NCBI GenBank assembly: GCA_036925085.1
Contig: JAUPFP010000011.1
Coordinates: 372,001-436,000, forward strand
Source: Brachycybe producta
Lineage: Eukaryota; Arthropoda; Diplopoda; Playtdesmida; Andrognathidae
Direction: 5' to 3'
Length of the DNA stretch: 64,000 nt
In this document: positions 2,983 through 53,500 of the stretch, piece by piece
How the letters are laid out: the number at the start of each line of letters is the position of its first letter
Position numbering within the stretch: position 1 is the first letter of the stretch
The notes under the pieces: generated by a model
The model's database searches: none
The model's input: only the letters and a program-made list of their open reading frames with translations
What the model was told of the DNA's origin: nothing
Position numbers and translations under genes: made by a program

Positions 2983-5900
2983 GTAATATTTACAAACCTC
3001 TTTTTAAAAAAAACATTTTATAAAATCACAAAGAATTGATTTGTGGTTATGTTTGAGTGTGACATAGTTCCCACCAATATGGAAATTCTAGAAACCGTGG
3101 AATTCTCAGAAAATATGTGAAATTTATATATCACGATATTTTTGATTTTTCCTTTTCTCGCCAGAGTATTAAATATATTTTTTTTTCAATGTGCAGGCTA
3201 TTGTTAGTCTGAAACATAGTGTAAATTACCCTGAAGAAACGTGGAAAATTGAAAATTGGCATTTGGTGGGAACCCTGTGTTAATTAAATAACTTCTTCGT
3301 AGTTGTACGGGGATTCAATTGGTTCTCATTATTTGATTGATTATAGATTTTGATGAAATCACACTTTATCTGTTAACTTATTAATTTTAAGTTTGCCATT
3401 TCAAGAAGGGGCGGTTCTATTTGTTTGTGTTGGGTAGAAACAAAATTCTTTTATCTCCTATGTCCTAATTAGTTGATCTCTGTGTTTCATAATTCCTATT
3501 TAAAATTTCAAATGTGCCACATACTCAAGCTTACCATATTAAAATCTTTGTATATTTACTATTGGTCCAGTCATCAAAACTCATCATAAATAATGAGAGC
3601 CCATTGAATTGAAAGTAATGAATTTTTTTATGAATAGCTTCATGATAGCATATGTGGTTTTCGATTATTTATTGCAAAAAAGGCAACTACTGTAGGTGTT
3701 TCCAATTGCCTTACAGTTGCTCCCAAAATTGTTCCGTTTGAGTTTCAAGATGAACTTTTACGTGAGGGGATGAGAGCCAGACTACAATGTGTTGTTAGTG
3801 ATGGGGATTTGCCCTTAACTGTCTCCTGGCTCAAGGATGGAATACCCCTCTCGTCATCGCTTGGTGTTTTGGTCCGTGTTTTGGACGAATATTCCAGCAT
3901 TCTAACGATTAACAGCATAACCCCCAACCACAACGGCAAATACACCTGTGTGGCCTCAAATAGAGCTGCCACCGTGACACATACAGCGGAATTGTCCGTC
4001 AACGGTAAACAGTGCTTTATGTCTTGATTTCCTTTTTTCAGTTCCTCCAAAGATCATCCCATTTGCGTTTCTCGATGACCAGTTTTACAAAGGAATGCGA
4101 GCTCATGTCACTTGTGCGATCAGTCAGGGCGATTTGCCAGTCACTTTTAAGTGGCTGAAAGATGACTTTAAGCTAGAATCTTCTGAGTTAGGAGTGTCAA
4201 GTCGCAAATACGACGAGCAAACTGAGTCTCTGAGCATTGATAATGTGAGCTCTCAGCATTCTGGCAACTACACTTGTGTGGTTAGCAACAGGGCGGGGAC
4301 AACAAGTTGGACTGCCGAACTACTTGTACGCGGTAATAATTCCCGCCTTAGTTATTTTGTTTCATTGTTTTGTTACAGTGGGCCCCAAGATAGTCCCCTT
4401 CCAATTTGGCGCCATTCATTATGAAGGGTCTGCAGCCAGAGTGATGTGTGGCTTGCAAGAAGGAGACGCCCCTATCCAGTTCTCATGGCTTCGGGATGGT
4501 GTCCCATTATTCGGTGGCGATTCTACCATCTCGGTCCATGAGGTGGATGGCCTGTCGAGCATTATCTCTTTCGAGAGTCTCACTGCCGATCATGCTGGCA
4601 CCTACACTTGCATCGCCAAGAATATGGCGGGCATCGACCGGCACAACGCCAATTTGACAGTGAATGGTAATTCTAAGTGATCGTATTTGCATGTTCCAGT
4701 AGCACCGAAGATCGTGCCCTTCTCGTTCCAAGGAGAACATGTGTTCGAGGGAGCGCTAGCGCGCCTCACTTGCGTGGTTTACCAGGGTGACCTACCCTTG
4801 ACCATCAACTGGCTTAAAGATCACAAGCCCATTTCCTCATTTTCTCCAATGGGCATACAAGTTCGTAATATTGACACCTACACGAGTATACTGACCATCG
4901 ACCATGTTGGAGTCGAGCACGGTGGCAACTATAGTTGTGTGGCCAAGAACCAGGCAGCTTCTGCAAGCCACACTGCAGTTCTGATCGTTAATGGTAGGGG
5001 CCTCCGCTTGAACCATGTTATCCTCTTGTGTTTCAGTTCCCCCGAAAGTGGTGCCGTTCTCGTTCCAAGACGAGCACTTAGCCGAGGGTCAGCTGGCCAG
5101 AGTGTCTTGCATTGTGAGCCGTGGAGATTTGCCATTGCGACTTGTTTGGGAGAAAGATGGCGTTGATATTTCGCCACAGTCTTTAGGTGTTCAGTTCAAG
5201 TCATTCGATGAACACTCGAGTATTCTGTCTATTAAAAGTGTTACTCCCGAACACAATGGAGTTTACACTTGTGTTGCGAGCAATGGGGCTGGTTCGGCCA
5301 GACACTCAGCCCAGCTGATTGTCAATGGTAATTTTCTTATTGAAGTAAATGGCAGCATTTTGTGTCTTGGCAGTTCCATTGTAAATAATGTTTGGGTGTT
5401 TTTTTATTTATTTTGTGCTCACTTGTTTCCTAATAATGTATATATGAGCTCGTATATTTTATGATGGCATTGCTATGATACACTGCACATTATCCTAATT
5501 ATAAATGTTTATTTTACTGATTATTATACAAGTATACTTTTATTTTTACAAATTTTTAACTTTTGCGTCTGGTTGCTTTTTTAGTTCCACCACAATGGAG
5601 CGTCGAACCCGAAGACATTTCTGTCTTGAAGGGAAGCAGTGCAATGTTACACTGTGGCGTTCGAGGGTTTCCGCAGCCTGAAATTTCTTGGATGAGAGTT
5701 TCTGGTGATTAGTGTAGATTTTAGAAGATTTTACAAAGATAATTACAACTGTTTTTCTTTACATTAATTTTAAAAAGGTACTCTACTAAATCAAAAATAT
5801 ACACCATTGAGCAGTGGCCCTGGTATCAGTTTGTACCCAAATGGAACGCTTTTCATTACGGCCACTGACGATAGTGATGCAGGAGATTATTATTGTGAAG

Positions 5901-14390: not shown

Positions 14391-14572
14391 ACAAAAACGG
14401 GCTTTATTTCCATTGTCAATCTCAGTTTCTTGAGTTTTGTGAAGTCTGTCAAATTCTGTCTTATTGTGTTCCTTTTAACTGTACCCCATCTCTTTCTCAT
14501 TGCAGTTATTTTCAAAAAATAATAATAAAATTATAATTTCTGCAGTGCTTAATTTAATCTGCACCTGTCAGA

Positions 14573-17500
14573 ATGATTTTAGTGCCTCTTATATTAGGTT
14601 TGGCCCTTTGTGTCATCACAAAAGGTGAAAAAGTGTCACATACTAGTATTATACATAGTGGCATAATTAATTTTAAATGTGTTTCAGGTGTTGAAGTTCA
14701 ATCTGGACCTAAGTTTGTCAAGGAGCCACCTACTAAGGTTGAGTTTGCAAACACCAAAGGAGCTCAAGTGGATTGTTCGGCCTCTGGAAATCCGTTGCCC
14801 ACCGTTAACTGGACACTCATCGATGGAAGCGAAGTGGTCGATGTCCGTGGTTTGCGTGAGGTCACCAAGACTGGAAGTCTCGTGTTTCGTTCTTTCAGAG
14901 CTGAGAACTACCGTCCTGACGTTCATTCTGCCGTTTATCGTTGTGTTGCTTCTAACGTTGCCGGTGTAATTCACAGCAGAGACGTCAATGTGCACGGTGG
15001 TAAGTTGCACCTTTATTTTTTTTCTTTAGCTTTTAATTACAATGCATGGAATGAAAGTTGTTCTTCAGAGTCATGAAGTATTAGTCTACGACTCCTATGC
15101 CATCGACGGTAACACCGCCGTTTTCAAATGCCACATTCCGACCGTTCTCAAGGATTACGTGACAGTCATGGCGTGGATCAAAAACGACAATTTGCTAATT
15201 CGTCCATCTTTTGAAGAAGGTTTGTGTATTCATATAGGAACATTGCAATTCATACTTTGTATTCATGATTATGATTGTAGTTTTGAATGGGAAATTTGCC
15301 GTCATGCCGTCTGGAGAATTACACATTCGTAACGTCACTCTAGGAGAATCCGGATCAAGATACAAATGCAAAACGGCCCATCGCTTAACCGGAGAGACTC
15401 AGATTAGTTCAGCCGATGGACAACTGTATGTAACTGGTCGGTCATGAAAATTTATAACTTTTTCATAAATTTGTATCTTAACTAACACTGTTTGATGTGC
15501 ATTTGCAGAATCCCGTGGTTTAATTGCACCAAAGATAAGTGAAAGTGATGATTCAGTTTCCTTCGCTATTGGACAGACTGTTGTTCTTGCATGTGCATCG
15601 CAAGGGAGCCCTTTACCTACAATTAAGTTAGTTAATTTTTTATTAGTGTATCTACAGAGTGTTCCAAAAATGCATACACACTTTGGTTGTTAATAATTGC
15701 CATATTTATTTTCTTAAATTTAATTTTATAATTAAGAGTAAATGTTACAATAAAGATTAGATATAAAAGCGTTACATGTTTTATGTTTAAATGATGCATT
15801 ATCTCAGGTGTTCAAAATGTCAACCATTCTAGTCATGACACTGCTGACATTGGTGAAAAATGGATTTGCAAACATTAATTAATGTATCTTTTGTATTTTT
15901 GCAACAAATCTCGGCAATTTGTTGTCATAATTGTATTAGATAGCAAGAAATCAAAGAAATAGTCAGAAAAATACACTAAATACGTTAATGGATGTTTGGA
16001 GATCGTTTTTTTTTTACTGAAGTTGTCAATGCTTTGATGACAATAGAGGACATTTAAACGGGTGTTTTTTAAACGTTTCCCAAGGCGGTCTACTAGAAAA
16101 GTAGTCGATGCACATGTGGAACACCCACCTTAAAAGGTCTCACTGGTGCAAGTAGGCTTGAGCCAGTAGTGGGGTACACTCAGTTCGCCTCATATTACAC
16201 ACATCATCACATATCAGGGTTATTGTTGACTTAGTGGACTATAATTTTTTTTTGTACCTTCTGTTCTGACAGTTGGAGTGTAAAAATATTTTTTTCTCTA
16301 TGGTCTCGTCCGCGCACCACCAGGCACACCATTGGGGACCACTGGTGTTTTCCGGACTGCAGTTTGAGAAACACTAATTTAAACGTAAAACATGGAATAC
16401 TTTTATAACTAATTTGTATTGTAACATTTATTATTAGATATTAACAACCACAAGCGTATATGGGGACATGCGTAGACTCACTGTAGAAAGGTTTGACTTA
16501 TGTTCTGGTTTAAGTTTAACTTTATTTGAATTTTTTTGAATATGAGATAATGAGGGAAAGTTCACCATATAAGTTAAATGTGCAAATGAAAGTGAATATC
16601 ATAGTAGAATTTTAGTTAGTCTGTTTGTTTAGAAGCAACATTATGCTTAAATTGAGTATTTTAGAAATTATAGATGTAAATGAATCATGTCAAGGGATTC
16701 TCATGTTAACAACTTAAAAAATATTATTTTAATGACAATATCAAATACTCGATTGTGGTTTTTAACTTCAAATTGGGCCCAAAAATAGAAATTGTCCCGA
16801 AACTAATAATTTGTTCTTGCCATAAATGGCATAAATCGTTCATTTTTATAGATGTGAATGTGAAAATTTACTTACATGATTAAGTTAGTATTCTAGTTTC
16901 TGAAACACACATTAAGTTTTTTAAAATTGTGTTCAACCTGCAGAGTGTCTAGAGTTCCACTGAAATTTTCGTTATTTTAAAGAATTATAATTATGTTTCA
17001 TCATATAATCCATGGAATTTTTCGTAGGTGGTACAAAAGGGGTTCTGATAATGATATGATTGAAGTTACTTTTGATGATCGGATTGTGAAGACTGAAAGT
17101 GCGATAGCCATCAAAACCAGCATTACTTCAGACGAAGGAACTTACACGTGTGAAGCGATGAGTGATTTAGGAAAGGAAGTCTTAGAAATGATCTTGATTG
17201 TTACTGGTAAATATCGTTATTTTTGTGGCAGTATTATACGTTATGTAATTAGTTTCGATGTTTGTAAAAAAATAGAACCATTGTCAGTGAATATTGCACC
17301 TTCCGTTTGGAGCTCTAAACTCAACGAGAGAGTTGTTTTCGAATGCACTACATCTGGAAAGATCTCTTCTTTGAGTTGGTTACACAATGGAGTTTTAATC
17401 AAGGATGTTTCTAGCAATAGTCTTGTTATTGAAAGTGTTACGTTGTCCGATCGTGGAATGTATCAGTGTTTTGTAAAAAACGAATCTGATTATGTGATGC

Positions 17501-18307
17501 AGTCTACTTCCGAACTCATGCTTTCAGGTTAGGTGTCAGCATTTGCGTTCCTTATTATTCATTGTATTGTATATCTGCCATTGTTTGTTTTAGAAATTTC
17601 TCCCCAAATTATTGAGGTGTTCGACGAGGTTGCTGTTCAACCGGGCAATTCGGTTACTCTCAAGTGTGCAGCAACTGGAATTCCACTTCCAAACGTTTTG
17701 TGGACTATCGATGGGATGCCACTGAATAGTACCTCTAGGGTTCACATTACAGCAACTGTAGATCATGATGGAAAAGCAACTAGTACTTTAAAATTATTGT
17801 CAGCGGTTGTGGAAGATGGTGGTGTCTACAGTTGCATTGCTTCTAGTCTATCTGGCCGTTTGTTCCATTCGGCCCGAGTCAACGTTTATGGTAGTTTATG
17901 CTATTTGGCGCATTCATGAGTTTTATTACTAAATTCGTAGTTTCTATTTAGGTCCTTTGGGAGTTCATGTAGTTCCTGATGTTTTTACAGTTTCTGGTCA
18001 AAGTTTGCTATTGAACTGTCCAATTTATGGCTATCCATTTACAAGTGTTGTTTGGGAAAAAGGTATTTTTGTAAGTGTTGGGGGGTGGGTTCTTTTTTTA
18101 CTCGGACATAATTTTTTTCTGTACTTATTTATATAATGGTTACAGACAACGAACAATTACGTTTAAGCCCTATACTTAGATATTTTCTTAATGGAACTTT
18201 GATTGCCAATGACGTTGATAGAAAAACTGATTCTGGAACATACAAATGTATTGTTGGAGGTGAAAATGGACAGGAGGTGGAAGCTGAAGTGAATGTCATT
18301 ATAATGG
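14573..18307 (+). CDS. Dscam: Gene B, first copy of signal peptide and Ig1-Ig6 exons
   Basis: Exons are 14573-14624 (signal peptide), 14688-14999 (Ig1), 15058-15219 and 15281-15436 (Ig2), 15509-15626 and 17028-17206 (Ig3), 17276-17527 (Ig4), 17594-17890 (Ig5), 17952-18062 and 18146-18307 (Ig6). This copy has the conserved upstream block, so it is the one expected to be transcribed from its own promoter. The ATG is preceded by tgtcaga as in gene C. The 1401-nt Ig3 intron holds a mariner-like element with a hAT element inside it. Confidence 0.88.
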
Positions 18308-21300
18308 GTAATATATACCAGCGCCATTTTAACATCGATTTATGGTTATGTGACAGGGATCTCACCAACATGAAAAACCGAGAGAGACTGACATTTTCAG
18401 AAAATATTAAATTTAGTTAGAAATACAGAAATTTGCATTAAAATGGAAAATACAGACAAAAACGCTTAATTTCCACAAAATACATAAAATTTACAAATCT
18501 TGTTATTTTTTATTTTAACCGTGCAAAAATATACAAAATTATCCTGAAAGAAAACTGAAAATTGGCATTTGGTGGGAACCCTGTGGGAATTAAATAATTA
18601 TAGTTGTTGTTCTATATAAATTCATTTTGCTCTTTTTGTTTATGTATTTATGTACTTATGACATATAAGCTTGGTATTTCAAAAAGGGGACAGCTTTTTT
18701 GGCATTATGAATTTTAAACAAAATTCTTCCAGTTAATTTATTCGTGTTAGATGATCTCTTTCCAACATGTACAAAATTTGAATGGGTAACATATTCAAGT
18801 GGATTTCGTAATAAAATTTAAAAGTCTAAGCTTGTATATTTACTAGTATATACACGATCATATGGTGCTATATTAAAATATTGTATCAATCCTCAAAACT
18901 CATCATAAACATTAAGAGCACGTTGAACTAAAAGGTTTAATCTGCACCTGTCAGAATGATTTTAGTGCCTCTTATATTAGGTTTGGCCCTTTGTGTCATC
19001 ACAAAAGGTGAAAAAGTGTCACATACTAGTATTATACATAGTGGCATAATTAATTTTAAATGTGTTTCAGGTGTTGAAGTTCAATCTGGACCTAAGTTTG
19101 TCAAGGAGCCACCTACTAAGGTTGAGTTTGCAAACACCAAAGGAGCTCAAGTGGATTGTTCGGCCTCTGGAAATCCGTTGCCCACCGTTAACTGGACACT
19201 CATCGATGGAAGCGAAGTGGTCGATGTCCGTGGTTTGCGTGAGGTCACCAAGACTGGAAGTCTCGTGTTTCGTTCTTTCAGAGCTGAGAACTACCGTCCT
19301 GACGTTCATTCTGCCGTTTATCGTTGTGTTGCTTCTAACGTTGCCGGTGTAATTCACAGCAGAGACGTCAATGTGCACGGTGGTAAGTTGCACCTTTATT
19401 TTTTTTCTTTAGCTTTTAATTACAATGCATGGAATGAAAGTTGTTCTTCAGAGTCATGAAGTATTAGTCTACGACTCCTATGCCATCGACGGTAACACCG
19501 CCGTTTTCAAATGCCACATTCCGACCGTTCTCAAGGATTACGTGACAGTCATGGCGTGGATCAAAAACGACAATTTGCTAATTCGTCCATCTTTTGAAGA
19601 AGGTTTGTGTATTCATATAGGAACATTGCAATTCATACTTTGTATTCATGATTATGATTGTAGTTTTGAATGGGAAATTTGCCGTCATGCCGTCTGGAGA
19701 ATTACACATTCGTAACGTCACTCTAGGAGAATCCGGATCAAGATACAAATGCAAAACGGCCCATCGCTTAACCGGAGAGACTCAGATTAGTTCAGCCGAT
19801 GGACAACTGTATGTAACTGGTCGGTCATGAAAATTTATAACTTTTTCATAAATTTGTATCTTAACTAACACTGTTTGATGTGCATTTGCAGAATCCCGTG
19901 GTTTAATTGCACCAAAGATAAGTGAAAGTGATGATTCAGTTTCCTTCGCTATTGGACAGACTGTTGTTCTTGCATGTGCATCGCAAGGGAGCCCTTTACC
20001 TACAATTAAGTTAGTTAATTTTTTATTAGTGTATCTACAGAGTGTTCCAAAAATGCATACACACTTTGGTTGTTAATAATTGCCATATTTATTTTCTTAA
20101 ATTTAATTTTATAATTAAGAGTAAATGTTACAATAAAGATTAGATATAAAAGCGTTACATGTTTTATGTTTAAATGATGCATTATCTCAGGTGTTCAAAA
20201 TGTCAACCATTCTAGTCATGACACTGCTGACATTGGTGAAAAATGGATTTGCAAACATTAATTAATGTATCTTTTGTATTTTTGCAACAAATCTCGGCAA
20301 TTTGTTGTCATAATTGTATTAGATAGCAAGAAATCAAAGAAATAGTCAGAAAAATACACTAAATACGTTAATGGATGTTTGGAGATCGTTTTTTTTTACT
20401 GAAGTTGTCAATGCTTTGATGACAATAGAGGACATTTAAACGGGTGTTTTTTAAACGTTTCCCAAGGCGGTCTACTAGAAAAGTAGTCGATGCACATGTG
20501 GAACACCCACCTTAAAAGGTCTCACTGGTGCAAGTAGGCTTGAGCCAGTAGTGGGGTACACTCAGTTCGCCTCATATTACACACATCATCACATATCAGG
20601 GTTATTGTTGACTTAGTGGACTATAATTTTTTTTTGTACCTTCTGTTCTGACAGTTGGAGTGTAAAAATATTTTTTTCTCTATGGTCTCGTCCGCGCACC
20701 ACCAGGCACACCATTGGGGACCACTGGTGTTTTCCGGACTGCAGTTTGAGAAACACTAATTTAAACGTAAAACATGGAATACTTTTATAACTAATTTGTA
20801 TTGTAACATTTATTATTAGATATTAACAACCACAAGCGTATATGGGGACATGCGTAGACTCACTGTAGAAAGGTTTGACTTATGTTCTGGTTTAAGTTTA
20901 ACTTTATTTGAATTTTTTTGAATATGAGATAATGAGGGAAAGTTCACCATATAAGTTAAATGTGCAAATGAAAGTGAATATCATAGTAGAATTTTAGTTA
21001 GTCTGTTTGTTTAGAAGCAACATTATGCTTAAATTGAGTATTTTAGAAATTATAGATGTAAATGAATCATGTCAAGGGATTCTCATGTTAACAACTTAAA
21101 AAATATTATTTTAATGACAATATCAAATACTCGATTGTGGTTTTTAACTTCAAATTGGGCCCAAAAATAGAAATTGTCCCGAAACTAATAATTTGTTCTT
21201 GCCATAAATGGCATAAATCGTTCATTTTTATAGATGTGAATGTGAAAATTTACTTACATGATTAAGTTAGTATTCTAGTTTCTGAAACACACATTAAGTT

Positions 21301-24300
21301 TTTTAAAATTGTGTTCAACCTGCAGAGTGTCTAGAGTTCCACTGAAATTTTCGTTATTTTAAAGAATTATAATTATGTTTCATCATATAATCCATGGAAT
21401 TTTTCGTAGGTGGTACAAAAGGGGTTCTGATAATGATATGATTGAAGTTACTTTTGATGATCGGATTGTGAAGACTGAAAGTGCGATAGCCATCAAAACC
21501 AGCATTACTTCAGACGAAGGAACTTACACGTGTGAAGCGATGAGTGATTTAGGAAAGGAAGTCTTAGAAATGATCTTGATTGTTACTGGTAAATATCGTT
21601 ATTTTTGTGGCAGTATTATACGTTATGTAATTAGTTTCGATGTTTGTAAAAAAATAGAACCATTGTCAGTGAATATTGCACCTTCCGTTTGGAGCTCTAA
21701 ACTCAACGAGAGAGTTGTTTTCGAATGCACTACATCTGGAAAGATCTCTTCTTTGAGTTGGTTACACAATGGAGTTTTAATCAAGGATGTTTCTAGCAAT
21801 AGTCTTGTTATTGAAAGTGTTACGTTGTCCGATCGTGGAATGTATCAGTGTTTTGTAAAAAACGAATCTGATTATGTGATGCAGTCTACTTCCGAACTCA
21901 TGCTTTCAGGTTAGGTGTCAGCATTTGCGTTCCTTATTATTCATTGTATTGTATATCTGCCATTGTTTGTTTTAGAAATTTCTCCCCAAATTATTGAGGT
22001 GTTCGACGAGGTTGCTGTTCAACCGGGCAATTCGGTTACTCTCAAGTGTGCAGCAACTGGAATTCCACTTCCAAACGTTTTGTGGACTATCGATGGGATG
22101 CCACTGAATAGTACCTCTAGGGTTCACATTACAGCAACTGTAGATCATGATGGAAAAGCAACTAGTACTTTAAAATTATTGTCAGCGGTTGTGGAAGATG
22201 GTGGTGTCTACAGTTGCATTGCTTCTAGTCTATCTGGCCGTTTGTTCCATTCGGCCCGAGTCAACGTTTATGGTAGTTTATGCTATTTGGCGCATTCATG
22301 AGTTTTATTACTAAATTCGTAGTTTCTATTTAGGTCCTTTGGGAGTTCATGTAGTTCCTGATGTTTTTACAGTTTCTGGTCAAAGTTTGCTATTGAACTG
22401 TCCAATTTATGGCTATCCATTTACAAGTGTTGTTTGGGAAAAAGGTATTTTTGTAAGTGTTGGGGGGTGGGTTCTTTTTTTACTCGGACATAATTTTTTT
22501 CTGTACTTATTTATATAATGGTTACAGACAACGAACAATTACGTTTAAGCCCTATACTTAGATATTTTCTTAATGGAACTTTGATTGCCAATGACGTTGA
22601 TAGAAAAACTGATTCTGGAACATACAAATGTATTGTTGGAGGTGAAAATGGACAGGAGGTGGAAGCTGAAGTGAATGTCATTATAATGGGTAATATATAC
22701 CAGCGCCATTTTAACATCGATTTATGGTTATGTGACAGGGATCTCACCAACATGAAAAACCGAGAGAGACTGACATTTTCAGAAAATATTAAATTTAGTT
22801 AGAAATACAGAAATTTGCATTAAAATGGAAAATACAGACAAAAACGCTTAATTTCCACAAAATACATAAAATTTACAAATCTTGTTATTTTTTATTTTAA
22901 CCGTGCAAAAATATACAAAATTATCCTGAAAGAAAACTGAAAATTGGCATTTGGTGGGAACCCTGTGGGAATTAAATAATTATAGTTGTTGTTCTATATA
23001 AATTCATTTTGCTCTTTTTGTTTATGTATTTATGTACTTATGACATATAAGCTTGGTATTTCAAAAAGGGGACAGCTTTTTTGGCATTATGAATTTTAAA
23101 CAAAATTCTTCCAGTTAATTTATTCGTGTTAGATGATCTCTTTCCAACATGTACAAAATTTGAATGGGTAACATATTCAAGTGGATTTCGTAATAAAATT
23201 TAAAAGTCTAAGCTTGTATATTTACTAGTATATACACGATCATATGGTGCTATATTAAAATATTGTATCAATCCTCAAAACTCATCATAAACATTAAGAG
23301 CACGTTGAACTAAAAGGAACGTATTGTTTCGCATCGATTAATTCATAAGAGTATGTGTAGGTTTTAATTATTTACTGCAAAAAGGCAACTAGGTGTTTCC
23401 TATTGCCTTACAGTTGCTCCCAAAATTGTACCGTTTGAGTTTCAAGATGAACTTTTACGAGAGGGGATGAGAGCCCGACTACAATGTGTTGTAAGTGATG
23501 GGGATTTACCCTTAACTGTCTCCTGGCTTAAGGATGGATTACCCTTCTCGTCATCACTTGGGGTTCTGGTGCGTGTTCTGGATGAATACTCCAGCATTCT
23601 AACGATTAACAGCATAACCCCCAGCCACAACGGCAAATATACCTGCGTGGCCTCTAATAAGGCTGCCACAGTGACACATACAGCGGAATTGTCTGTCAAC
23701 GGTAAACAGTGCTTTATGTTTTCACTTTTTTTCAGTTCCTCCCAAGATCATTCCATTTGCGTTTCTCGATGACCAGTTTTACAAAGGAATGCGAGCTCAT
23801 GTGACATGTGCGATCAGTCAGGGCGATTTGCCAGTCACTTTTAAGTGGCTGAAGGATGGCTTCATGTTAGAATTCTCTGAGTTAGGAGTGTCGAATCGCG
23901 AATATGATGAGCAAACTGGGTCTCTGAGCATTGATAACGTGAGCTCTCAGCATTCTGGCAACTACACTTGTGTTGTTGGCAACAGGGCGGGAACAACGAG
24001 TTGGACTGCTGAACTACTTGTACGCGGTAATCATTCCCGCCTTAGTTATTTTGTTTCAACGTTTTGTTACAGTGAGCCCCAAGATAGTTCCTTTCCAATT
24101 TGGCGCCATTCATTACGAAGGGTCTGCAGCCAGAGTGATGTGTGGCTTGCAAGAAGGAGACGCCCCAATCCAGTTCTCATGGCTTCGAGATGGTGTTCCT
24201 TTATTCGGTGGCGATTCTACCATCTCGGTCCATGAGGTGGATGGAATGTCAAGCATTCTCTCTTTCGAGAGCCTCACTGCCGATCATGCCGGCACCTACA

Positions 24301-27300
24301 CTTGCATTGCCAAGAATAGGGCGGGCATCGACTGGCACGACGCCAATCTGAAAGTGAATGGTAATTCTAAGTGATTGTATTTGCATGTTCTAGTAGCGCC
24401 GAAGATCGTGCCCTTCTCATTTCAAGGAGAACATGTGTTTGAGGGAGCGCTGGCACGCCTCACTTGTGTGGTTTACCAGGGTGACCTGCCCTTGACCATC
24501 AGCTGGCTTAAAGATTACAGTCCCATTTCGTATTTCCCTTCAATGGGCATCCAAGCACGTAACGTTGACACCTACACGAGCATACTGACCATCGATCATG
24601 TCGAAGTCGAGCACGGTGGCAACTATAGTTGTGTGGCCAAGAACCAGGCAGCTTCTGCAAGCCACACAGCAGTTTTGATAGTTAATGGTAGGGATCTTTC
24701 CTTGAACCATGTTATCCTCTTGTGTTTCAGTTCCCCCGAAAGTGGTGCCATTCTCATTCCAAGACGAGCACATAGCCGAGGGTCAGCTGGCCCGAGTGTC
24801 TTGCATTGTGAGCCGTGGGGATTTGCCATTGCAACTTGTCTGGGAGAAAGACGGTGTGGAAATTTCACCTCAGTTTTTAGGTGTTAATTTCAAGTCATTC
24901 GATGAACACTCGAGTATTTTATCCTTTACTCGTGTTACTCCGCAACACAACGGAATCTACACTTGTGTTGCAAGAAATGGGGCTGGATCGGCCAGACACT
25001 CAGCCCAGCTGATTGTCAATGGTAATCAATATAATTGGCCAGCATTTTGTCTTGGCAATTCCGTTCTAAATAATTTTGTTTTACCCCACTGTAAACCCTA
25101 TAAAGAAGTAATCTTATGATGTAATTATAATGTGTGGAACCTCATTTTTATTTTTTTCTGCACAATTGTTTCCCAATGCACATATGTTTTTATACGAGCT
25201 CCCATTTTTTTCATTAGCATTGCCATGATACAATGTACATTTCGTAATTTTAAATACTTAGCTCTAATCACCTTTAAATACTTTTTATTTTTTACGCATA
25301 ATTTAACTCTTGCATCGGGTTGTTTTTAGTTCCACCAAAATGGATTGTTCAACCCAGAGACATTTATGTCTTCAAGGGAAGCAATGCGATGTTACACTGT
25401 AGTGTTCGAGGGTTTCCTCAGCCTGTAGTTTCTTGGAAGAGAGTATCTGGTAACTCATGTAGATTTTAGAAATTTTTGTAAAAGTAAATTACAATTTTTT
25501 TTAACATTAATTTTATGAAGGTAGTTTATTGAATCAGAAATATACACCATTGAGCAGTGGCCCTGGTATTAGTTTGTACCCAAATGGAACGCTTTTCATT
25601 ACGGCCACTGACAATAGTGATGCAGGAGATTATTATTGTGAAGCTTCAAATGGTATTGGAAAAGGATTAAGGCGACAAGTTCAGATTAAAATTCAAGGTG
25701 ACATTTCGTTCATAATACATTTTTCACACTCTATAAACAATGGCATTTATTTTTTTTTTAATTTTTAGCACCTCCTGTTTTTGAGACTGGATTAAGAAAC
25801 CAAACCGTTTCTGTTGGGAAAAAAATTCAGTTGCAGTGTGTAGTTCATGGAGATTCTCCGCTTAAGATTGATTGGCAAAGAGATAACAAACTCATACAAG
25901 GTGGACAATCAAGGTACAAAAGTATGTCTCAAAAAGGTTCAGTGGTCAAAGTTTTGAAACGAGTCATTTTATTTCAGATTTGAGGTAGTTACAACAAATA
26001 CAACATTGACCTCTATTTCTGTACTGACGATCAATAAAGTAGCTCGGGAGGATAGCGCAAATTATGAATGTGTTGCTGAAAACGTTTATGGGACGAATCG
26101 ATCATCTGGAATACTAAAAGTTGTTGGTGTGTTTTGTTTGATACAAATTAAAGATTTTGCGCCACATGTTAACTATGCACAACAGCTGCATGTTTTGATT
26201 AAATATGACCATATTCAAATGAAGTTGACAAATCCTATTAGATGTTGTACAATAGCTTCGAAAATTGTTATAGTATTGTTGATAGGTTGGCTTCAGTTAT
26301 ATATTCATTTGTATAGCATAAAATGGTGGCACAGTTTAGAAGCTACAACTACTTTAAAAACGACTTTATATTGAAAGTTGTAGTTACAAAGTTGTCACAG
26401 CACTGTTGAATATAACTGTTGTAAATATGTCTTTATACTTTAAAGAACCACCAAGCGCACCTCAAGAGTTGACGGCAGCTGTAATTGAAAGCAGAAAAAT
26501 TGAATTGTCTTGGAAAGCTTCGTATGATGGCAACGATGCAATTAAGAAGTACATTATCCAGTACAAATTAGAATCTGGTAATTTATGAGGTTTTTAGAAG
26601 GATCTTAATAAGCTGTATTCAAATTTCTTCTTCTTCTAGATTCGTGGCAGGAAGCAATAATGATGGAGATCGTGAATGGAGTACCTACAAATAGCATTGT
26701 CAGCCAGCTTCAACCTGCGACAAATTACATGTTTCGTGTTTTCTCTGAGAATTTGCAAGGACGTAGTTTAGCCAGTCAGAGTATTCATGTTACAACTGAT
26801 GATGATGGTCACTATTACATATAAATTAGTGGTTGCTCCTCATTGCCACGTTTTAAATTCTTAGTTCACTTTTGATTGTAGTTCCGTCAGGGACACCCTT
26901 AAATGTTCAAGTTGAACCAATCAACGTTGAGACATTCAAAGTATTTTGGAAGGTTCGTTTTTACATTTTTTAACCGACGTCACTACTAGCTAAGTATTTT
27001 TTCGATATAAAAGGCACCGGAAGACAAACTGTGGAATGGCAAAATTCAAGGCTATTACATTGGTTATAAAGAAACGGACAACAGTGACCGTTATCTTTTT
27101 AAAACCCTTATGACTGCCGAGCCAAAAGCGGATGATCTATACGTACAAATTGGTGGTTTGAAGCAATTTACAAAGTATTCCATTGTGGTCCTGGCATATA
27201 ACAGTAAAGGCAAAGGGCCACAGACGGATCCCATTGTGGTTATGACCTCAGAAGGAGGTAAATTGCCTTCTTTGTTGCTTATTTGGTTTGTTGTTTAACT

Positions 27301-32647: not shown

Positions 32648-35600
32648 ATGGTTTTAGTGCCACTTGTGTTAGTGTTGGCCCTTTGTGCCATCACAAAAGG
32701 TGAGGAACTGTCAATTTATAAATAATGCCAAACAATCCATAATTAATTTTAATTGTGTTTCAGGTGTCGAGGTTCAGTCTGGACCTAAGTTTGTTAAGGA
32801 GCCACCTGCTAAAGTTGAGTTTGTGAACACCAAAGGAGCTCAAGTGGATTGTTCGGCCTCTGGTAATCCTTTGCCCACCGTTAACTGGACACTCATCGAT
32901 GGAAGCGAAGTGGTCGATGTCCGTGGTTTGCGTGAGGTCACCAAGTCTGGAAGTCTCATATTTCGTTCATTCAAAGCCGAAAATTTCCGTCCTGACATTC
33001 ATTCTGCCCTTTATCGTTGTGTTGCTTCTAACGTTGCAGGCGTAATTCACAGCAGAGACATTAGTGTGCACGGTGGTAAGTTGCTCATTTATTTTTTATC
33101 TATTTCAGTTTATTTAAATGCATGGTTTTAAGTTGTTTTTCAGAATCACGAAGTTCTCGTCTACGACTCGTACGCCATCGACGGCAACACTGCCGTTTTC
33201 AAATGCCACATACCGACCGTTCTCAAGGACTACGTGACAGTCACAGCTTGGATAAAGAACGACAATTTACTCATTCGTTCATCTTTTGAAGAAGGTCTGT
33301 GCCTTCAAGTTTCAATTTCTTAGTTTGCATTCATTGTTATGATTGTAGTTTTGAATGGCAAATTTGCCGTCATGCCATCTGGAGAATTACACATTCGCAA
33401 CGTAACTCTAGGAGAATCCGGATCAAAATACAAGTGTAAAACGGCCCATCGCTTAACCGGAGAAACTCAAATTAGTTCGGCCGATGGACAGTTGTATGTA
33501 ACTGGTACGAAATAATCTAGCGTTTTTCATAAGTGTGTGTTTATATTTTAAATGATATTGTTTCTATGCATTTTTAGAATCCCGTGGTTTAATTGCACCA
33601 AAGATAATTGAAAGTGACGATTCAATTTCCGTTGCTGTTGGACAAACTGTCGTTTTTGCATGTGCATCACAAGGAAGTCCTCTACCCACAATTAAGTCAG
33701 TGAAACATTTATCATAAACTCATAATCCACCACCTCTTTATGCGCACCAAATGTTTGCAAAAATATAATTATTAGTTATTTTTTGATTTTTTAATTTTTT
33801 TGTTTACCTTATTTTGGTGAAAATTCGTCCATTTTCACATGCCATTTTGATTAAGTTAAAATTAGCAGTCAAATGTGATCAGTGGTGGATTAAATAAGGA
33901 AAATGGGAAGGGCTGACACGGCACAGGGGAGACGCTTGTGTGGAATTATATGAGGGGTTAATAGGGAACAATAGGGTGGCCTATTTGTTCAGGTAAAGAG
34001 GTTGATGTGACAGCAGTAAATGAGCAAAAGGGGCAAAAGACCTAGCAAAGGTGAGAAGAAGAGCAGAAAAAGTGTACCCGTCGAAGACATTGTTTCTTCA
34101 TTTTTGTTTACATACATAGGCAATACGAATTTGTATCTTTTATAATGTATAATTCTTCTTTTTTGAAATAATTTAAATAAATAATTTCTCAAAATAGTAA
34201 AAAGGCCATTATTTATTTTAAAATTTGATATGTTATTAATTTTAATAATTTGCTGGAATTAATTATTTTAAATTATTTTAAAGAAATAAGTTTATTCTGG
34301 ATTATATTTGTTTAATTAAAAGCTTAATACATTTCCTTTGTAGGTGGTACAAAAAAGGTTCTGGTAATCAAATAATTGAACTCACTTTCAATGGTCGGTT
34401 TGTGAAGACTGAAAGTGCCCTGGTTATCAAAAGCATTGTTTCCTCGGACAAAGGAATTTACACGTGTGAAGCGATAAGTGATTTGGGAAAAGAAGTGTTA
34501 GAAATCAACCTGGTTGTTACTGGTAGAATGTTCTGTTTTTATTTAAATTTCAGTATTGTATTTTATGTATTTATTGTTGCTGTTTATAAAAAAAATAGAG
34601 CCGTTTTCAGTGAGTGTGGCACCATCCATTCGGAGCTCCAAACTAAATGAGAGAGTTGTTTTTGAATGCACCACATCTGGAAAGATCTCTTCTTTAAGTT
34701 GGTTACACAATGGACGTGTAATGAATGATATTTCGAGCAATAGTCTAGTGATTGAAAGTGTTACGCTGTCCGATCGTGGAATGTATCAGTGTTTTGTTAA
34801 GAATGAATCTGGTTATTTGATGCAATCCACTTCCGAACTCATGCTTTCAGGTTAAATATTCGTGTTTATATTTTTTATTCTTAATTAGATTATTTATTTG
34901 TCTGTGGCTTGTAATTCATATTGTTTTCTTTAGAAATTTCTCCCCAGTTTCTTGAGGTTTTTGACGAGGTTGTTGTCGAGCCAAGCAGTTTGGTTACTCT
35001 CAGGTGCACAGCAACTGGGATTCCTCTTCCAATAATTTCCTGGACTATCGATGGAATGCAACTGAACAGTAGCTCAAAAGTTGACATTACATTTGCTATG
35101 GCTCATGATGGAAAAGTATTTAGTATTTTGAAGTTGATATCAACCGTTGTTGAGGATGGTGGTGTCTACAGTTGCATTGCTTCTAGTTCTTCTGGACGTT
35201 TGGTTCATTCTTCGAGGGTCAACATTTATGGTATGCTAACTTATACTGAGTATAATTGAGTTATATGCTTTTTAGAACTAGGAGTTTTGTTTAAGGTGCT
35301 TTGGGAAGCCGTGTTGTTCCTGATGTTTTTGCAGTTTCTGGTCATAGTTTGCAAATGAATTGTCCTGTTTATGGCTATCCAATTGCAACTGTTCTTTGGG
35401 AAAAAGGTATGTGTTGATGTCAAGCTATCATTTAGTTGTTATTTGTGCAGCTTTTCGGTTATAATGTTTTTATTGTTTAAACTATTTCAAGACAATAGCC
35501 CATTGCTTCTTAGTCGAATGCTGACGTACTTTCACAACGGGACGTTGATTGCTGCTTATGTTGACAAAAAAACTGATTCTGGGACATACAAATGCATAGC

Positions 35601-35653: not shown

Positions 35654-38600
35654 GTAATATTAAAAGCTTGTTGCAATTTTTGTTTTCATAATATTTTGTT
35701 TGGGTAATTTATTTAACGCTTATCTGCTTTTCTATAAGTCTTACACACAATATTAGCTTAATTAAATATTATATCAAGAATAAAAAACATTATTTTTTCA
35801 ACATACAAACATTGTTAAGAAATGCCTCCTCCAAATGAACATTTACATACAGGCTTTATTAGAAATTAGATTAGGAAGCGAATGTTGTAAATGAGTAAAG
35901 TATAATTTTGTGATGAAATTTTTAAGTTAGTTTCACACTGTCATAAAATGTTAAACACTTTTTACTGCCAATCATAGTTGTTGGTCAATCGTATAATCAA
36001 TGGGATTTTTATTACTGTTCAGCACTGAGTTATGTTTTTGAGAATTTATGCAAATTTTGTAAAATAATTTCTGGCCATTATACAGTGTCCCAAAAATGTA
36101 TACACACTTTGGTTGTTTGTTAATATTTATTATTGTTAATTTGATTATATAATTAAGAGTAAATGTTACACTTAAGATTAGTTATAAAAGCATTATATGT
36201 TTTCTGTTTAAATGATGCATTGTCTCAGGTTTTCAAAACGCCATCCATTCTCGTAGTGGCATTCCTGACATCGGTCAGAAATGGATTTGCAAGCATCAGT
36301 TAATGCATTTTTTGTATCTGTGCAACAATTCTCAGCGATTTCTTGCCATAACTGTATTAGAAGGCAAGAAATCGAAGAAAATAGTCACAAAAATACAAGA
36401 GACACTTTAATTGATGTTTGGAGATCTTACCAATGCCTTCATGACAATGGACTGCATTGTGACTATTTGATCTAATGCCGCATTTAAACGTAAACATGTA
36501 ATGCTTTGATACACTTGTATCTAATCTTTATTGTAACATATGCTCTTCATTGTGAAATTAAATTTAAGAAAATAAACGTGGCAGTTGTTAACAACCAACT
36601 TGTGTATACAATTTTAGGACATGTTGTAGTGTGCATTTAAACTATATTCACATCTAAAATTGTGAAATTATGTTAGCTTTGTGTGTTTAATTTTTGTTTA
36701 CTGCAACAATTGGCTAGTAGTTGTTTCCAATTGCCCTTTCAGTTGCTCCTAAAATTGTACCGTTTGAGTTTCAAGATGAACTTTTGCGAGAGGGGACGAG
36801 AGCCAGGCTACAGTGTGTTGTTAGTGATGGGGACTTGCCCCTACTAGTGTCTTGGCTCAAGGATGGATTTCCCCTCTCGTCATCGCTGGGTGTATTGGTA
36901 CGTGTTCTGGACGAATATTCCAGCATACTAACGATTAACAACATAACCCCCAGCCACAACGGAAAATACACCTGCGTGGCCTCAAACAGGGCTGCCTCAG
37001 TGACACATACGGCGGAATTATCTGTCAATGGTAAACCGTGTTTTATCTCTAAACTTCATTTTTTCAGTTCCTCCAAAAATTATCCCGTTTGCGTTTCTGG
37101 ATGACCAGTTTTACAAAGGAATGCGAGCTCACGTAACTTGTGCGATCAGTCAGGGCGATTTGCCAGTCACTTTTAAGTGGCTGAAGGATGGCTCCATGCT
37201 TACCTCCTCTGAGTTAGGACTGTCGAATCGCAAATATGATGAACAGACTGAATCTTTAAGCATTGACAATGTGAACTCTGAGCATTCTGGCAACTACACT
37301 TGTGTTGTTAGCAACAGGGCGGGGACAACAAGTTGGACTGCCGAGCTACTTGTTCGCGGTAATCATTCGCGCCTTAGTTATTTTGTTTCATCGTTTTTAT
37401 TGCAGTGGGCCCCAAGATAGTTCCCTTTCAATTTGGGGCCATTCATAATGAAGGGTCTGCAGGCAGAGTGATGTGTGGCTTGCAAGAAGGAGACGCCCCA
37501 ATCCAGTTCTCGTGGCTTCGAGATGGTGTCCCTTTATTCGGTGGCGATTCTACCATCTCGGTCCATGAGGTGGATGGCCTGTCGAGCATTCTCTCTTTCG
37601 AGAGCCTTACTGCCGATCATGCCGGCACCTACACTTGCGTCGCCAAGAATAGGGCGGGCATCGACCGGCACGACGCCAATTTGACAGTAAATGGTAATTC
37701 TAAGTGATCGTATTTGCATGTTCCAGTAGCGCCGAAGATTGTGCCCTTCTCGTTCCAAGGAGAACATGTGTTCGAGGGAGCGCTGGCACGCCTCACTTGC
37801 GTGGTTTACCAGGGTGACCTACCCTTGACCATCACCTGGTTGAAAGATGACATCCCTGTTCCCTCTTTTATTCCTTCTATGGGCATCCAAGTTCGTAACG
37901 TTGACACATACACAAGTATACTGACTATCGACCATGTTAAAGTCGATCACGGTGGCAACTACAGTTGTGTGGCCAAGAACCAGGCAGCCTCTGCAAGCCA
38001 CACTGCAGTCCTGATTGTTAATGGTAGGGCTCCTCTTGAACCATGCTATCCTCTTGTGTTTCAGTGCCCCCCAAAGTGGTGCCATTCTCGTTCCAAGACG
38101 AGCACTTAGTCGAGGGTCAGCTGGCCCGAGTGTCTTGCATTGTGAGCCGTGGTGACTTTCCATTGCGACTTGTCTGGGAGAAAGATGGTGTTGAAATCTC
38201 GCCACAGTTTGTGGGAATTCAGATCAAGTCGTTCGATGAACACTCAAGTATTCTCTCTATTACAAGTGTTACACCCGAATACAACGGAGCCTACACTTGT
38301 GTTGCTAGCAATGGAGCAGGATCTGCTAGACACTCAGCCCAGTTGACTGTTAATGGTAATCACTATACAGCTTATTGATAATTTAGGATTCCTGTAGTTT
38401 ATTGGCAGTATCATGATACATATCATAAAATAACTAGACTAATAAATTATAATTTCGCCTATATTATAATTTATACTCAAATAATTATTAAAAGTTAATA
38501 ATTAAGTTTGATTTATCACGAAAACTGTTTTCGATATTAAATCTATTGCTGTAAATTTATAACAACAACATGTCTGTACCTTTGTTGGCAATTGCTATTA

Positions 38601-50588: not shown

Positions 50589-53500
50589 GTAATACAATAA
50601 ACTTAATGCAATTTTTGTGTTTAAAACATTTTAGTTCATGCTCATAAATTGTAGGGTGGTTCTAATAGCAATTATAGTTTTTCTAAGTTATGCATCTCAC
50701 CCCTTTTAAAATGTTTTCTTACATAGAAAATATTTACATTGTTGTAGCCTCCAAGGTTTCCTCGTTTTTAACATTATTTTGGCGTACATGTATTTTGTAC
50801 ATCTTTGGTTGATCTTCTTTTGATAATTTTTAATATTATCACTATTTTCACTACTGTACCGTGGGGGAGTTTAAGTTTTCAAAATTAAGAACCACCCTAC
50901 TTTACATAAATAAATATCTTTGCAATAATTTTATTTAGGTGGAGCTTAGAAAAGTGAAAGAAATGCTGTGTGGCACAAGTAAAACGTTTTTTATTTAATG
51001 GTGACTCGCGATTATCTCAAAAGCTATAATTGTTACACTAGTCGTGTACTTGTTAACAAGTTGTATATTTATTGAATCATGGTGTAGATACAATTTGGCT
51101 CTCAGTAGAGGTGGTACGATCTATTGGCTGCACTCAGCCCTATAGGCAAAGTTTTTATTTCAGCTATCTCTGTATTATTTATGTTGAGGTCATCAAATAG
51201 AAAAGTTAGTGAAATTTGAAAATGATGTTAAAAAGTCGTTGTCTGATGCTGAAGCAACAAAGAGAAAGCATTTTCAGTTTTGATGTCTGTGTTGATATTA
51301 TAACTTAATAATTATTAAAAAAATAACATGATCACAAGTATATTTTAAACAGCAACAAAAACAATAATCAAAAGTAACGTGAAGTATTCGTGAAACAACT
51401 TATTTTATACCACATTTTCAGTATTCAATAACTATTTTACTTTTGACTAATATTTTTCAACCAATATTTAACAACTACAATAAATGTTAAATGTGTAGCT
51501 GTAATAGTTGGAGATATTCATCATTAAATAAGAGATGGTTTACATGCGCCACTTTGTATTTTTTTAGTTTTACATTTCAGAAAAAAATATTTAATTATCA
51601 TAAAAGAGTAAAAGTAATTTCATAATGATATTTTTTGAAAAAAAAAAAACATTTGTGACAATTTGAAATTTTATTTTCACGCCTAAAATTGCCCTTACAG
51701 TTGCTCCCAAAATTGTACCGTTTGAGTTTCAAGATGAACTTTTACGAGAGGGGATGAGAGCCAGACTACAATGTGTAGTTAGTGATGGGGATTTACCCCT
51801 GACAGTGTCTTGGCTTAAGGATGGATTGCCCCTCTCGTCATCGCTGGGGGTTCTGGTGCGTGTTCTGGATGAATATTCCAGCATTCTAACGATTAACAAC
51901 ATAACCCCCAGCCACAACGGGAAATACACCTGCGTGGCCTCAAACAGGGCTGCCTCAGTGACACATACAGCGGAATTATCTGTCAATGGTAAACCGTGCT
52001 TTATCTTTAAACTTCATTTTTTCAGTTCCTCCAAAAATTATCCCGTTTGCGTTTCTGGATGACCAGTTTTACAAAGGAATGCGAGCTCACGTAACTTGTG
52101 CGATCAGTCAGGGCGATTTGCCAGTCACTTTTAAGTGGCTGAAGGATGGCACCATGCTTACCTCCTCTGAGTTAGGAGTGTCGAATCGCAAATATGATGA
52201 ACAGACTGAATCGTTAAGCATTGACAATGTGAACTCTCAGCATTCTGGCAACTACAGTTGTGTTGTTAGCAACAGGGCGGGGACAACAAGTTGGACTGCC
52301 GAACTACTTGTTCGCGGTAATCATTCACACTTGGGTTATTTTATTTCATCGTTTTTGTTGCAGTGGGCCCCAAAATAGTTCCCTTTCTATTCGGGGCCAT
52401 TTATTATGAAGGGTCTGCAGCCAGAGTGATGTGTGGCTTGCAAGAAGGAGACGCCCCAATCCAGTTCTCATGGCTTCGAGATGGTGTCCTTTTATTCGGT
52501 GGCGATTCTACCATCTCGGTCCATGAGGTGGATGGCCTGTCGAGCATTCTTTCTTTTGAGACCCTCACTGCTGATCATGCCGGCACCTACACTTGCGTCG
52601 CCAAGAATAGGGCGGGCATCGACCGGCATGATGCAACTTTAACAGTGAACGGTAATTCTAAGTGATCGTATTTGCATGTTTCAGTAGCGCCGAAGATCGT
52701 ACCGTTTTCGTTCCAAGGAGAACATGTGTTTGAGGGAGCTCTTGCACGCCTCACTTGCGTGGTTTACCAGGGTGACCTACCTTTAACCATCAGCTGGTTG
52801 AAAGATGACATTCCCATTCCCTCTTCCTTCCCGTCTATGGGCACACAAGTTCGTAACGTTGACACTTATACAAGCATACTGACCATCGACCACGTTAAAG
52901 TTGATCACGGTGGCAACTATAGTTGTGTGGCCAAGAACCAGGCAGCTTCTGCAAGCCACACCACAGTCCTGATTGTTAATGGTAGGAGCCTCCGCTTGAA
53001 CCATGTTATCCTCTTGTGTTTCAGTTCCCCCAAAAGTGGTGCCGTTCTCGTTCCAAGACGAGCACTTAGCCGAGGGTCAGCTGGCCAGAGTGTCTTGCGT
53101 TGTGAGCCGTGGGGATTTGCCATTGCGAATTGTTTGGGAGAAAGACGGCGTTGAAATTTCACCGCAATTTTTGGGAGTTCAGATTAAGTCGTTTGATGAA
53201 CACTCGAGTATTCTTTCTATTACAAGTGTTATTTCCGAACACAATGGAGTCTACACTTGTATTGCTAGCAATGGGGCAGGATCAGCCAGACACTCAGCCC
53301 AGCTGACTGTCAATGGTAATTAAAAATTAGCTAGGTGGTTTTTTGGCAGTCTCATTGTAATACATTGACATTGTATTGTCTCAGTTTAATTTCATTGGTT
53401 GATTTTTAAGTGTATGACGTCGCTCAATTACGTTTGAGAAGGAGATTCACATACTGTACATTCATACGGTTTAGTCGTTATGGAAAACGTGACGTCAAAA

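What the first reader, a model, noticed from the sequence alone, without database searches (positions are those of the whole stretch)
3717..5327. Five Ig7 exons separated by 33-47 nt: a steric lock for mutually exclusive splicing
In all four genes the gaps between the five Ig7 exons are 33-47 nt (A 37/46/33/43, B 34/46/33/43, C 37/47/33/41, D 37/47/33/43). The shortest intron I found elsewhere in the same genes is 54 nt. The two size classes do not overlap. Introns this short leave no room for both splice sites and a branch point, so neighbouring Ig7 exons probably cannot be joined. Mutually exclusive Ig7 exons are known in Strigamia Dscam; the tightly conserved sub-minimal spacing as the mechanism is my inference.
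Basis: partly seen in the sequence, partly recalled or inferred. Interest (0 to 1): 0.85.

Follow-up and report, generated by a model that had tools for sequence, protein, structure and literature searches.

The report
Branch-point lock between duplicated Dscam exons
In a Dscam cell-adhesion gene family of what is probably a centipede, five interchangeable exons sit so close together that the splicing machinery probably cannot join neighbours, and the longer spacers nearly always lack the letters that would let them escape this lock; the rule is visible in DNA but not yet shown in RNA.

Summary
All 16 gaps between the Ig7 exons of the four window genes are 33-47 nt; the other 120 introns of those genes are at least 54 nt. 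At least 21 such five-exon arrays were found in the genome, the same set with three Ig7 queries. On the window's contig 48 of 48 gaps are 33-47 nt; in the other nine arrays 13 of 36 are 54-64 nt, so length classes overlap family-wide. What does not overlap is room for a branch point: the 3'-most adenine at least 12 nt from the acceptor lies at most 36 nt from the donor in 84 of 84 gaps, and at least 39 nt in 40 ordinary introns of 64 nt or less. Longer gaps carry an adenine-poor tract; Ig7.1 acceptors, behind a long intron, do not. This supports a steric donor/branch-point lock: a known kind of mechanism in a serial, five-exon setting. It cannot suffice: it blocks 4 of 10 exon pairs, the exons keep frame, and three two-exon loci have gaps of 341, 419 and about 5000 nt. 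One gap fails at a 10-nt cutoff, four at 8 nt. No RNA data were available.

The parts
3717..5327 (+). Gene A Ig7 array: exons 3717-4004, 4042-4332, 4379-4666, 4700-4993, 5037-5327
   Evidence: open frames of 288/291/288/294/291 nt, phase 1-1
4005..4041 (+). Gene A gap 1, 37 nt
4333..4378 (+). Gene A gap 2, 46 nt
4667..4699 (+). Gene A gap 3, 33 nt
   Evidence: interior 96% identical between genes A/B and C/D
4994..5036 (+). Gene A gap 4, 43 nt
   Evidence: interior 90% identical between A/B and C/D
2983..3716 (+). Gene A intron Ig6 to Ig7.1, 734 nt; its acceptor belongs to the Ig7.1 control set
5328..5584 (+). Gene A intron Ig7.5 to Ig8, 257 nt
23414..25021 (+). Gene B Ig7 array: exons 23414-23701, 23736-24026, 24073-24360, 24394-24687, 24731-25021
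23702..23735 (+). Gene B gap 1, 34 nt
24027..24072 (+). Gene B gap 2, 46 nt
24361..24393 (+). Gene B gap 3, 33 nt
24688..24730 (+). Gene B gap 4, 43 nt
36743..38355 (+). Gene C Ig7 array: exons 36743-37030, 37068-37358, 37406-37693, 37727-38023, 38065-38355
37031..37067 (+). Gene C gap 1, 37 nt
37359..37405 (+). Gene C gap 2, 47 nt
37694..37726 (+). Gene C gap 3, 33 nt
38024..38064 (+). Gene C gap 4, 41 nt
51701..53315 (+). Gene D Ig7 array: exons 51701-51988, 52026-52316, 52364-52651, 52685-52981, 53025-53315
51989..52025 (+). Gene D gap 1, 37 nt
52317..52363 (+). Gene D gap 2, 47 nt
52652..52684 (+). Gene D gap 3, 33 nt
52982..53024 (+). Gene D gap 4, 43 nt
33295..33348 (+). Shortest ordinary intron of the four genes, 54 nt (gene C)

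Best explanation
The compact Ig7 arrays work as a chain of steric donor/branch-point locks. In each gap the donor of exon n and every adenine likely to serve as branch point of exon n+1 lie within about 36 nt, too close for U1/U6 at the donor and U2 at the branch point to act on the same gap. Each gap can therefore serve exon n as donor or exon n+1 as acceptor, not both, and neighbours cannot be joined. SHOWN by sequence: gap lengths, the ceiling on donor-to-branch room in 84 gaps at the 12-nt cutoff, the adenine-poor tracts of the longer gaps, the ordinary adenine content at Ig7.1 acceptors, and frame-neutral exon lengths. INFERRED: that this ceiling is below what this animal's spliceosome can use, that selection keeps it, and that exons are used one at a time. 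The lock alone is not enough: joins that skip at least one exon (6 of 10 pairs) stay possible, so a second, unidentified step, such as commitment of one exon by a regulator or a long-range RNA structure, must act on top.
For: Gaps 33-47 nt against 54 nt or more in 120 other introns of the same four genes. In 21 arrays, distance from donor to the 3'-most adenine at least 12 nt from the acceptor: maximum 36 in 84 gaps; minimum 39 in 40 ordinary introns of 64 nt or less and in the 98 of 130 nt or less from the four genes. In the 13 gaps of 54-64 nt the adenine fraction at -10 to -24 is 0.03, against 0.31 in 40 ordinary introns of 64 nt or less. For 8 of 8 lineage-by-position units at 54 nt or more against 0 of 14 ordinary intron positions, exact P is 3.1e-6 at the 12-nt cutoff if units are independent (7 of 8 at 10 nt). 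Internal controls: Ig7.1 acceptors 0.27, n = 21; second exons of three loose pairs 0.47, 0.27, 0.27, and 30 short introns of other paralogues 0.28. No gap of 84 exceeds 64 nt, whereas 27 of 120 ordinary introns exceed 100. Exon lengths in the 21 arrays are multiples of 3 with no stops (at three arrays the aligner ended one codon or so short of an outer exon boundary), so frame cannot enforce exclusivity; retaining a gap meets a stop, in the gap or after a frameshift, in 81 of 84. The five positions each form one group in a 55-exon tree. Human precedent: about 50 nt is needed between donor and branch site, and 35 nt abolished early complex assembly (PMC6692369, passages).
Against: No RNA evidence; no branch point is mapped. 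The adenine measure and its cutoff were chosen after I had read the gaps; at 10 nt one gap fails (C1 gap 4, 54 nt) and at 8 nt four fail. Shuffling gap interiors gives P 0.003-0.03 for six of the eight longer units, but 0.08 for C37 gap 2 and 1.0 for C1 gap 4. One of 30 control introns in other paralogues also has room under 36 nt; I take it for an aligner artefact. Ig8 acceptors vary widely (0, 0.13, 0.47, 0.40 adenine), so low adenine is not unique to gaps. The units share ancestry (C10 and C2 are sisters). Ordinary introns here may have branch points nearer the donor than the maxima I measured, so the margin is narrow. Six of ten exon pairs are not blocked. Three two-exon Ig7 loci lack such gaps.
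Confidence: 0.6

Rival explanations
1. The short gaps are a consequence, not a cause. Exclusivity is enforced otherwise; because no gap is ever removed as an intron on its own, the lower length limit that holds for ordinary introns is lifted and deletions shrink the gaps to little more than donor plus acceptor signals.
For: Gap length crosses 54 nt several times between lineages (with the tree); three two-exon Ig7 loci have gaps of 341, 419 and about 5000 nt; the lock alone cannot explain non-neighbour exclusion.
Against: It does not predict that the longer gaps lack adenines near the acceptor while Ig7.1 acceptors do not, nor that no gap of 84 exceeds 64 nt.
Confidence: 0.25
2. Competing RNA pairing, as proposed for insect Dscam1: one docking site in a flanking intron pairs with one of five selector sequences, so that a single exon is chosen.
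For: Reported for insect Dscam1 clusters; in beetle Dscam1 more than 45% of exon 6 gaps are under 50 bp and selectors reach into exons (PMC8042237, passages; the same passages say that pairing in exons 4 and 9 has been questioned). It would supply the missing non-neighbour exclusion. Gaps 3 and 4 are the most conserved of the 26 short introns and gaps compared between A/B and C/D. Against ordinary-intron selectors several flank tests were positive, and against shuffled flanks some were mildly so.
Against: Among 10 C11 arrays the upstream introns share between subgroups chiefly their last 20-40 nt. Against dinucleotide-shuffled selectors, which keep composition, 1 of 14 flank tests was below 0.01 and 2 of 14 below 0.05 by mean energy, 0 of 14 below 0.05 by weakest partner. 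For six of the ten arrays only about 855 nt of upstream sequence and no downstream intron were tested. A 48-nt block shared by A and B recurs elsewhere in the genome and looks like a repeat. Selectors inside exons were not searched.
Confidence: 0.1
3. The exons are not mutually exclusive; two or three non-neighbouring Ig7 exons may be included together, lengthening the receptor.
For: The exons keep frame; joins such as 7.1 to 7.3 are sterically free.
Against: Published analysis of Strigamia maritima transcripts suggests mutually exclusive use (PMC4244043, passage).
Confidence: 0.05

Closest known systems
Mutually exclusive exons enforced by distant branch points (alpha-tropomyosin, actinin, OGDH)
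   Same: Branch point held within the steric limit of the upstream donor, followed by an adenine-poor pyrimidine tract; intron growth restricted (PMC7969005, passages).
   Different: OGDH is an exon pair; here five exons with four successive locks, repeated in 21 arrays, mostly through very short gaps, and not enough alone for five exons. Branch points here are predicted, not mapped.
Drosophila Dscam exon 17.1/17.2 (steric hindrance plus RNA structure)
   Same: Same gene family, steric rule reported; known to me only from the citing passage and title in PMC7969005, the paper itself is not held.
   Different: Transmembrane exon pair, not the Ig7 array.
Insect Dscam1 Ig7 (exon 9) cluster
   Same: Same protein domain varied by duplicated exons.
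   Different: Attributed to docking-site/selector pairing, which some authors question (PMC8042237, passages); no such pairing was detected here.
Strigamia maritima Dscam genes with 2-5 Ig7 exons
   Same: Same gene family and arrangement; mutually exclusive use reported (PMC4244043, PMC5465998, passages).
   Different: The passages seen give no gap lengths or mechanism; the primary paper (Brites et al. 2013, recalled; looked up) is not held.
Human mutually exclusive exon clusters with donor-branch distance under 50 bp
   Same: 57 clusters (9%) show potential steric interference (PMC5740500, passage).
   Different: Prediction over unrelated human genes.

Membership tests
Steric (donor/branch-point) mutually exclusive exons | Branch point of the downstream exon lies within the steric limit of the upstream donor | tested here: inconclusive
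   Candidate branch adenines at most 36 nt from the donor in 84 of 84 gaps at the 12-nt cutoff, 83 of 84 at 10 nt, 80 of 84 at 8 nt; by sequence only, branch points not mapped and this animal's limit unknown
Steric (donor/branch-point) mutually exclusive exons | Extended adenine-poor tract between branch point and acceptor where the intron is not itself sub-minimal | tested here: met
   Adenine fraction 0.03 in 13 gaps of 54-64 nt against 0.31 in 40 ordinary introns; C1 gap 4 departs at looser cutoffs
Steric (donor/branch-point) mutually exclusive exons | Exons never joined to each other in RNA | not testable with these tools
   No RNA reads available
Dscam | Many Ig and six FN3 domains, DSCAM-type C-terminal part, transmembrane segment | tested here: met
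   Pfam on the gene A protein: 9 Ig_3 stretches, 6 fn3 stretches, FN3_DSCAM-DSCAML_C 176 bits over a cut-off of 39; the Ig7.1 peptide matches the solved Drosophila Dscam N-terminal chain 3dmk at residues 622-710, E 1e-27, though a titin chain scores higher. The order Ig1-9, FN1-4, Ig10, FN5-6 and the transmembrane segment were read by eye and recall
Docking-site/selector mutually exclusive splicing | One intronic site complementary to a selector near every variable exon, conserved among relatives | tested here: inconclusive
   Not found in flanking introns; exon selectors and distant introns not searched
Frame-enforced mutually exclusive exons | Exon length not a multiple of 3 | tested here: not met
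   Exons in 21 arrays are multiples of 3
U2/U12 incompatibility | U12-type donor at one of the exons | tested here: not met
   105 of 105 array donors begin GTAAA, GTAAT or GTAGG; U12 consensus recalled

The most novel reading that the evidence does not exclude
A serial steric lock: four consecutive bistable gaps in which each gap is either donor for the exon before or acceptor for the exon after. Any setting of the four gaps defines at least one exon and never two neighbours; exactly one exon is defined in 5 of 16 settings, so a directional or cooperative step would turn the chain into a one-of-five switch. What evolution conserves is donor-to-branch room, kept at or below about 36 nt in five array lineages by short length in some gaps and by absence of adenines in others, an alternative to the RNA-pairing solution proposed for insect Dscam1.
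Probability: 0.35. Interest if true: 0.8.

Novelty: new variant of a known kind. Interest (0 to 1): 0.6.

Why it matters
How one exon of many is chosen is a long-standing question in Dscam biology and is mostly discussed in terms of RNA pairing in insects. These arrays offer 84 natural variants of one short element, with a simple measurable rule and built-in controls (Ig7.1, loose pairs), so the steric model can be tested by long reads and minigenes. If right, this lineage and the insects solved the same exon-choice problem by different physical means.

Tried and rejected
Docking/selector pairing: a first script had an empty selector and its upstream results are void; the corrected run against shuffled flanks was mildly positive, against ordinary-intron selectors several of 8 tests were positive, which I put down to the gaps being richer in G+C (0.32 against 0.27); against shuffled selectors 1 of 14 was below 0.01. 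Conserved 48-nt block in the upstream intron of A and B: rejected as docking site because copies with 3 mismatches occur on five other contigs. U12 donors and frame enforcement: rejected. Gap length as the conserved quantity: rejected. A 42-nt 'intron' in L013 is at no shared intron position and I take it for an aligner artefact; it is the one of 30 control introns with room of 36 nt or less.

Rows not used: introns flagged uncertain. Of the 54 kept there, one in L028 (60 nt) is really an array gap, the 341-nt one in L009 is the gap of a loose pair, and the model of L027 is out of register; therefore left L026-L028 out.

Papers: PMC4244043, PMC5465998, PMC7969005, PMC3912159, PMC5740500, PMC11802352, PMC8042237, PMC8363638 and PMC6692369 were seen as passages only; the rest as search listings. 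Among the rows listed by those searches I saw no paper on gap length or steric exclusion in myriapod Dscam; several listings were cut (20 or 12 rows of 51-231) and the library lacks most subscription journals.

Full report
WHAT IS THERE. The window holds four Dscam-like genes in tandem. Each model has introns at the same 30 places and 1716 residues (D one fewer); A, C and D have no stop, B has one in-frame TAG at 30256. Pfam finds 9 Ig and 6 FN3 stretches and the DSCAM C-terminal domain in the gene A protein. The Ig7 exon is present five times in each gene. The gaps are exactly as reported, with GT and AG ends. Exon lengths are multiples of three and the junctions phase 1, so including two exons keeps the frame. 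Retaining a gap meets a stop, in the gap or after a frameshift, in 81 of 84 cases.

BEYOND CHANCE. Of 120 non-array introns in the four genes none is shorter than 54 nt, 40 are 54-64 nt, the median is 70 and 27 exceed 100. In other paralogues 30 introns of 130 nt or less were measured, the shortest credible one 60 nt; one of 42 nt sits at no shared position and is probably an artefact. These models rest on homology, not on transcripts.

THE FAMILY. Three different Ig7 peptides found the same 21 five-exon arrays: 12 on contig C11, six on C37, one each on C1, C10 and C2 (150 of 262, 181 and 224 candidates were scored, so the number is a lower bound). I read the sequence of all 21: four in the window, 17 fetched. 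C11: 48 of 48 gaps 33-47 nt. C37: gap 2 is 54-61 nt in the six arrays, the other 18 gaps are 32-40. C1: 31/40/47/64. C10: 59/61/29/60. C2: 43/60/56/61. So 71 of 84 gaps are under 54 nt and 13 are not. In a tree of 55 exons from 11 of the 21 arrays each of the five positions forms one group, four label changes in all, the least possible; support is weak for positions 1 and 3, and the program warned of few columns and long branches. The five-exon array therefore probably predates these lineages, and gap length has since crossed 54 nt repeatedly.

WHAT IS CONSERVED INSTEAD. In the ordinary short introns the word CTAAY, found 19 times, is commonest 12-17 nt from the acceptor; looser words show little peak. 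I measured, for each gap, the distance from the donor to the 3'-most adenine that is at least m nt from the acceptor. For m = 12 and 15 the array maximum is 36 and the ordinary minimum 39 (at 15, one gap has no such adenine); for m = 10 one gap is out (C1 gap 4, 54), for m = 8 four are. The measure was chosen after reading the gaps. The longer gaps achieve this by a tract nearly without adenine: 0.03 at -10 to -24, against 0.31 in ordinary introns of similar length. Ig7.1 acceptors, which face a long intron and need no lock, have 0.27, and the second exons of three loose pairs 0.47, 0.27 and 0.27. By lineage and position, 20 array units average 0.09 and 28 ordinary positions 0.27 (Mann-Whitney P 7e-7). 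Array acceptors are more pyrimidine-rich (0.77 against 0.63) and array donors seldom have G at +5 (18 of 105, all at exon 7.4, against 48 of 116); a stronger tract to make up for weaker donors is an alternative reading, against which stands the ordinary tract of Ig7.1.

HOW IT PROBABLY WORKS. In human extracts about 50 nt between donor and branch site are needed, 46 nt abolished splicing of one substrate and 35 nt abolished early assembly of another (PMC6692369, passages); in OGDH, branch points 25-41 nt from the donor enforce exclusive exons (PMC7969005, passages). This animal's ordinary introns imply a somewhat lower limit than the human one, and the gaps stay below their range. Human introns of 43-65 nt can nevertheless be spliced (PMC8363638, passages), so short length is not by itself proof. 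The lock is thus a likely bar to neighbour joins, not a proven one.

WHAT IT CANNOT DO. It excludes 4 of 10 pairs; 12 of 31 exon combinations remain, 7 with more than one exon. Three Ig7 pairs on C4, C6 and C5 have gaps of 341, 419 and about 5000 nt; whether each pair belongs to one gene was not shown. A further step is needed. I looked for a docking site in flanking introns and found none that survives a composition-matched control; selectors within exons were not examined.

PLACE IN WHAT IS KNOWN. Mutually exclusive Ig7 exons in Strigamia Dscam are published, with 40 genes carrying two to five Ig7 exons (PMC4244043, passage). Steric exclusion is a known kind of mechanism. New here, as far as the rows listed by my searches show, are the serial form, its recurrence in 21 arrays and the trade between gap length and adenine content.

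Noticed in passing
window 14553-18935 and 18936-23317: A 4.4-kb stretch with the Ig1-Ig6 part of gene B is present twice head to tail; 4382 of 4383 aligned columns are identical. Recent partial duplication or assembly artefact.
   Followed up: partly
window 30256: In-frame TAG in gene B, at residue 1477 of the model, before the transmembrane part; gene B may be broken or make a shorter product.
   Followed up: partly
C11:1732600-1829190 (L036, L039, L040): Three arrays about 47 kb apart; the first two gave identical match scores at all five exons and identical gaps, suggesting very recent duplication.
   Followed up: no
window 4667-4699 and 4994-5036 and their counterparts: Gaps 3 and 4 are 96% and 90% identical between A/B and C/D, above fourfold-degenerate sites and the other short introns compared; possible extra regulatory sequence.
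   Followed up: no
window 3244-3291 (gene A upstream intron): 48-nt block shared with gene B at 94%; copies of its core with 3 mismatches on five other contigs, likely an interspersed repeat.
   Followed up: partly
L051 (C5:1576000-1583500): Two Ig7 exons about 5 kb apart whose best matches are positions 1 and 4 of the five-exon arrays; perhaps a decayed array.
   Followed up: partly
L026 (C1), gap 4: 64-nt gap with a GAAG acceptor and TTAAC about 10 nt before it; the one gap that may be spliceable as an ordinary intron.
   Followed up: partly
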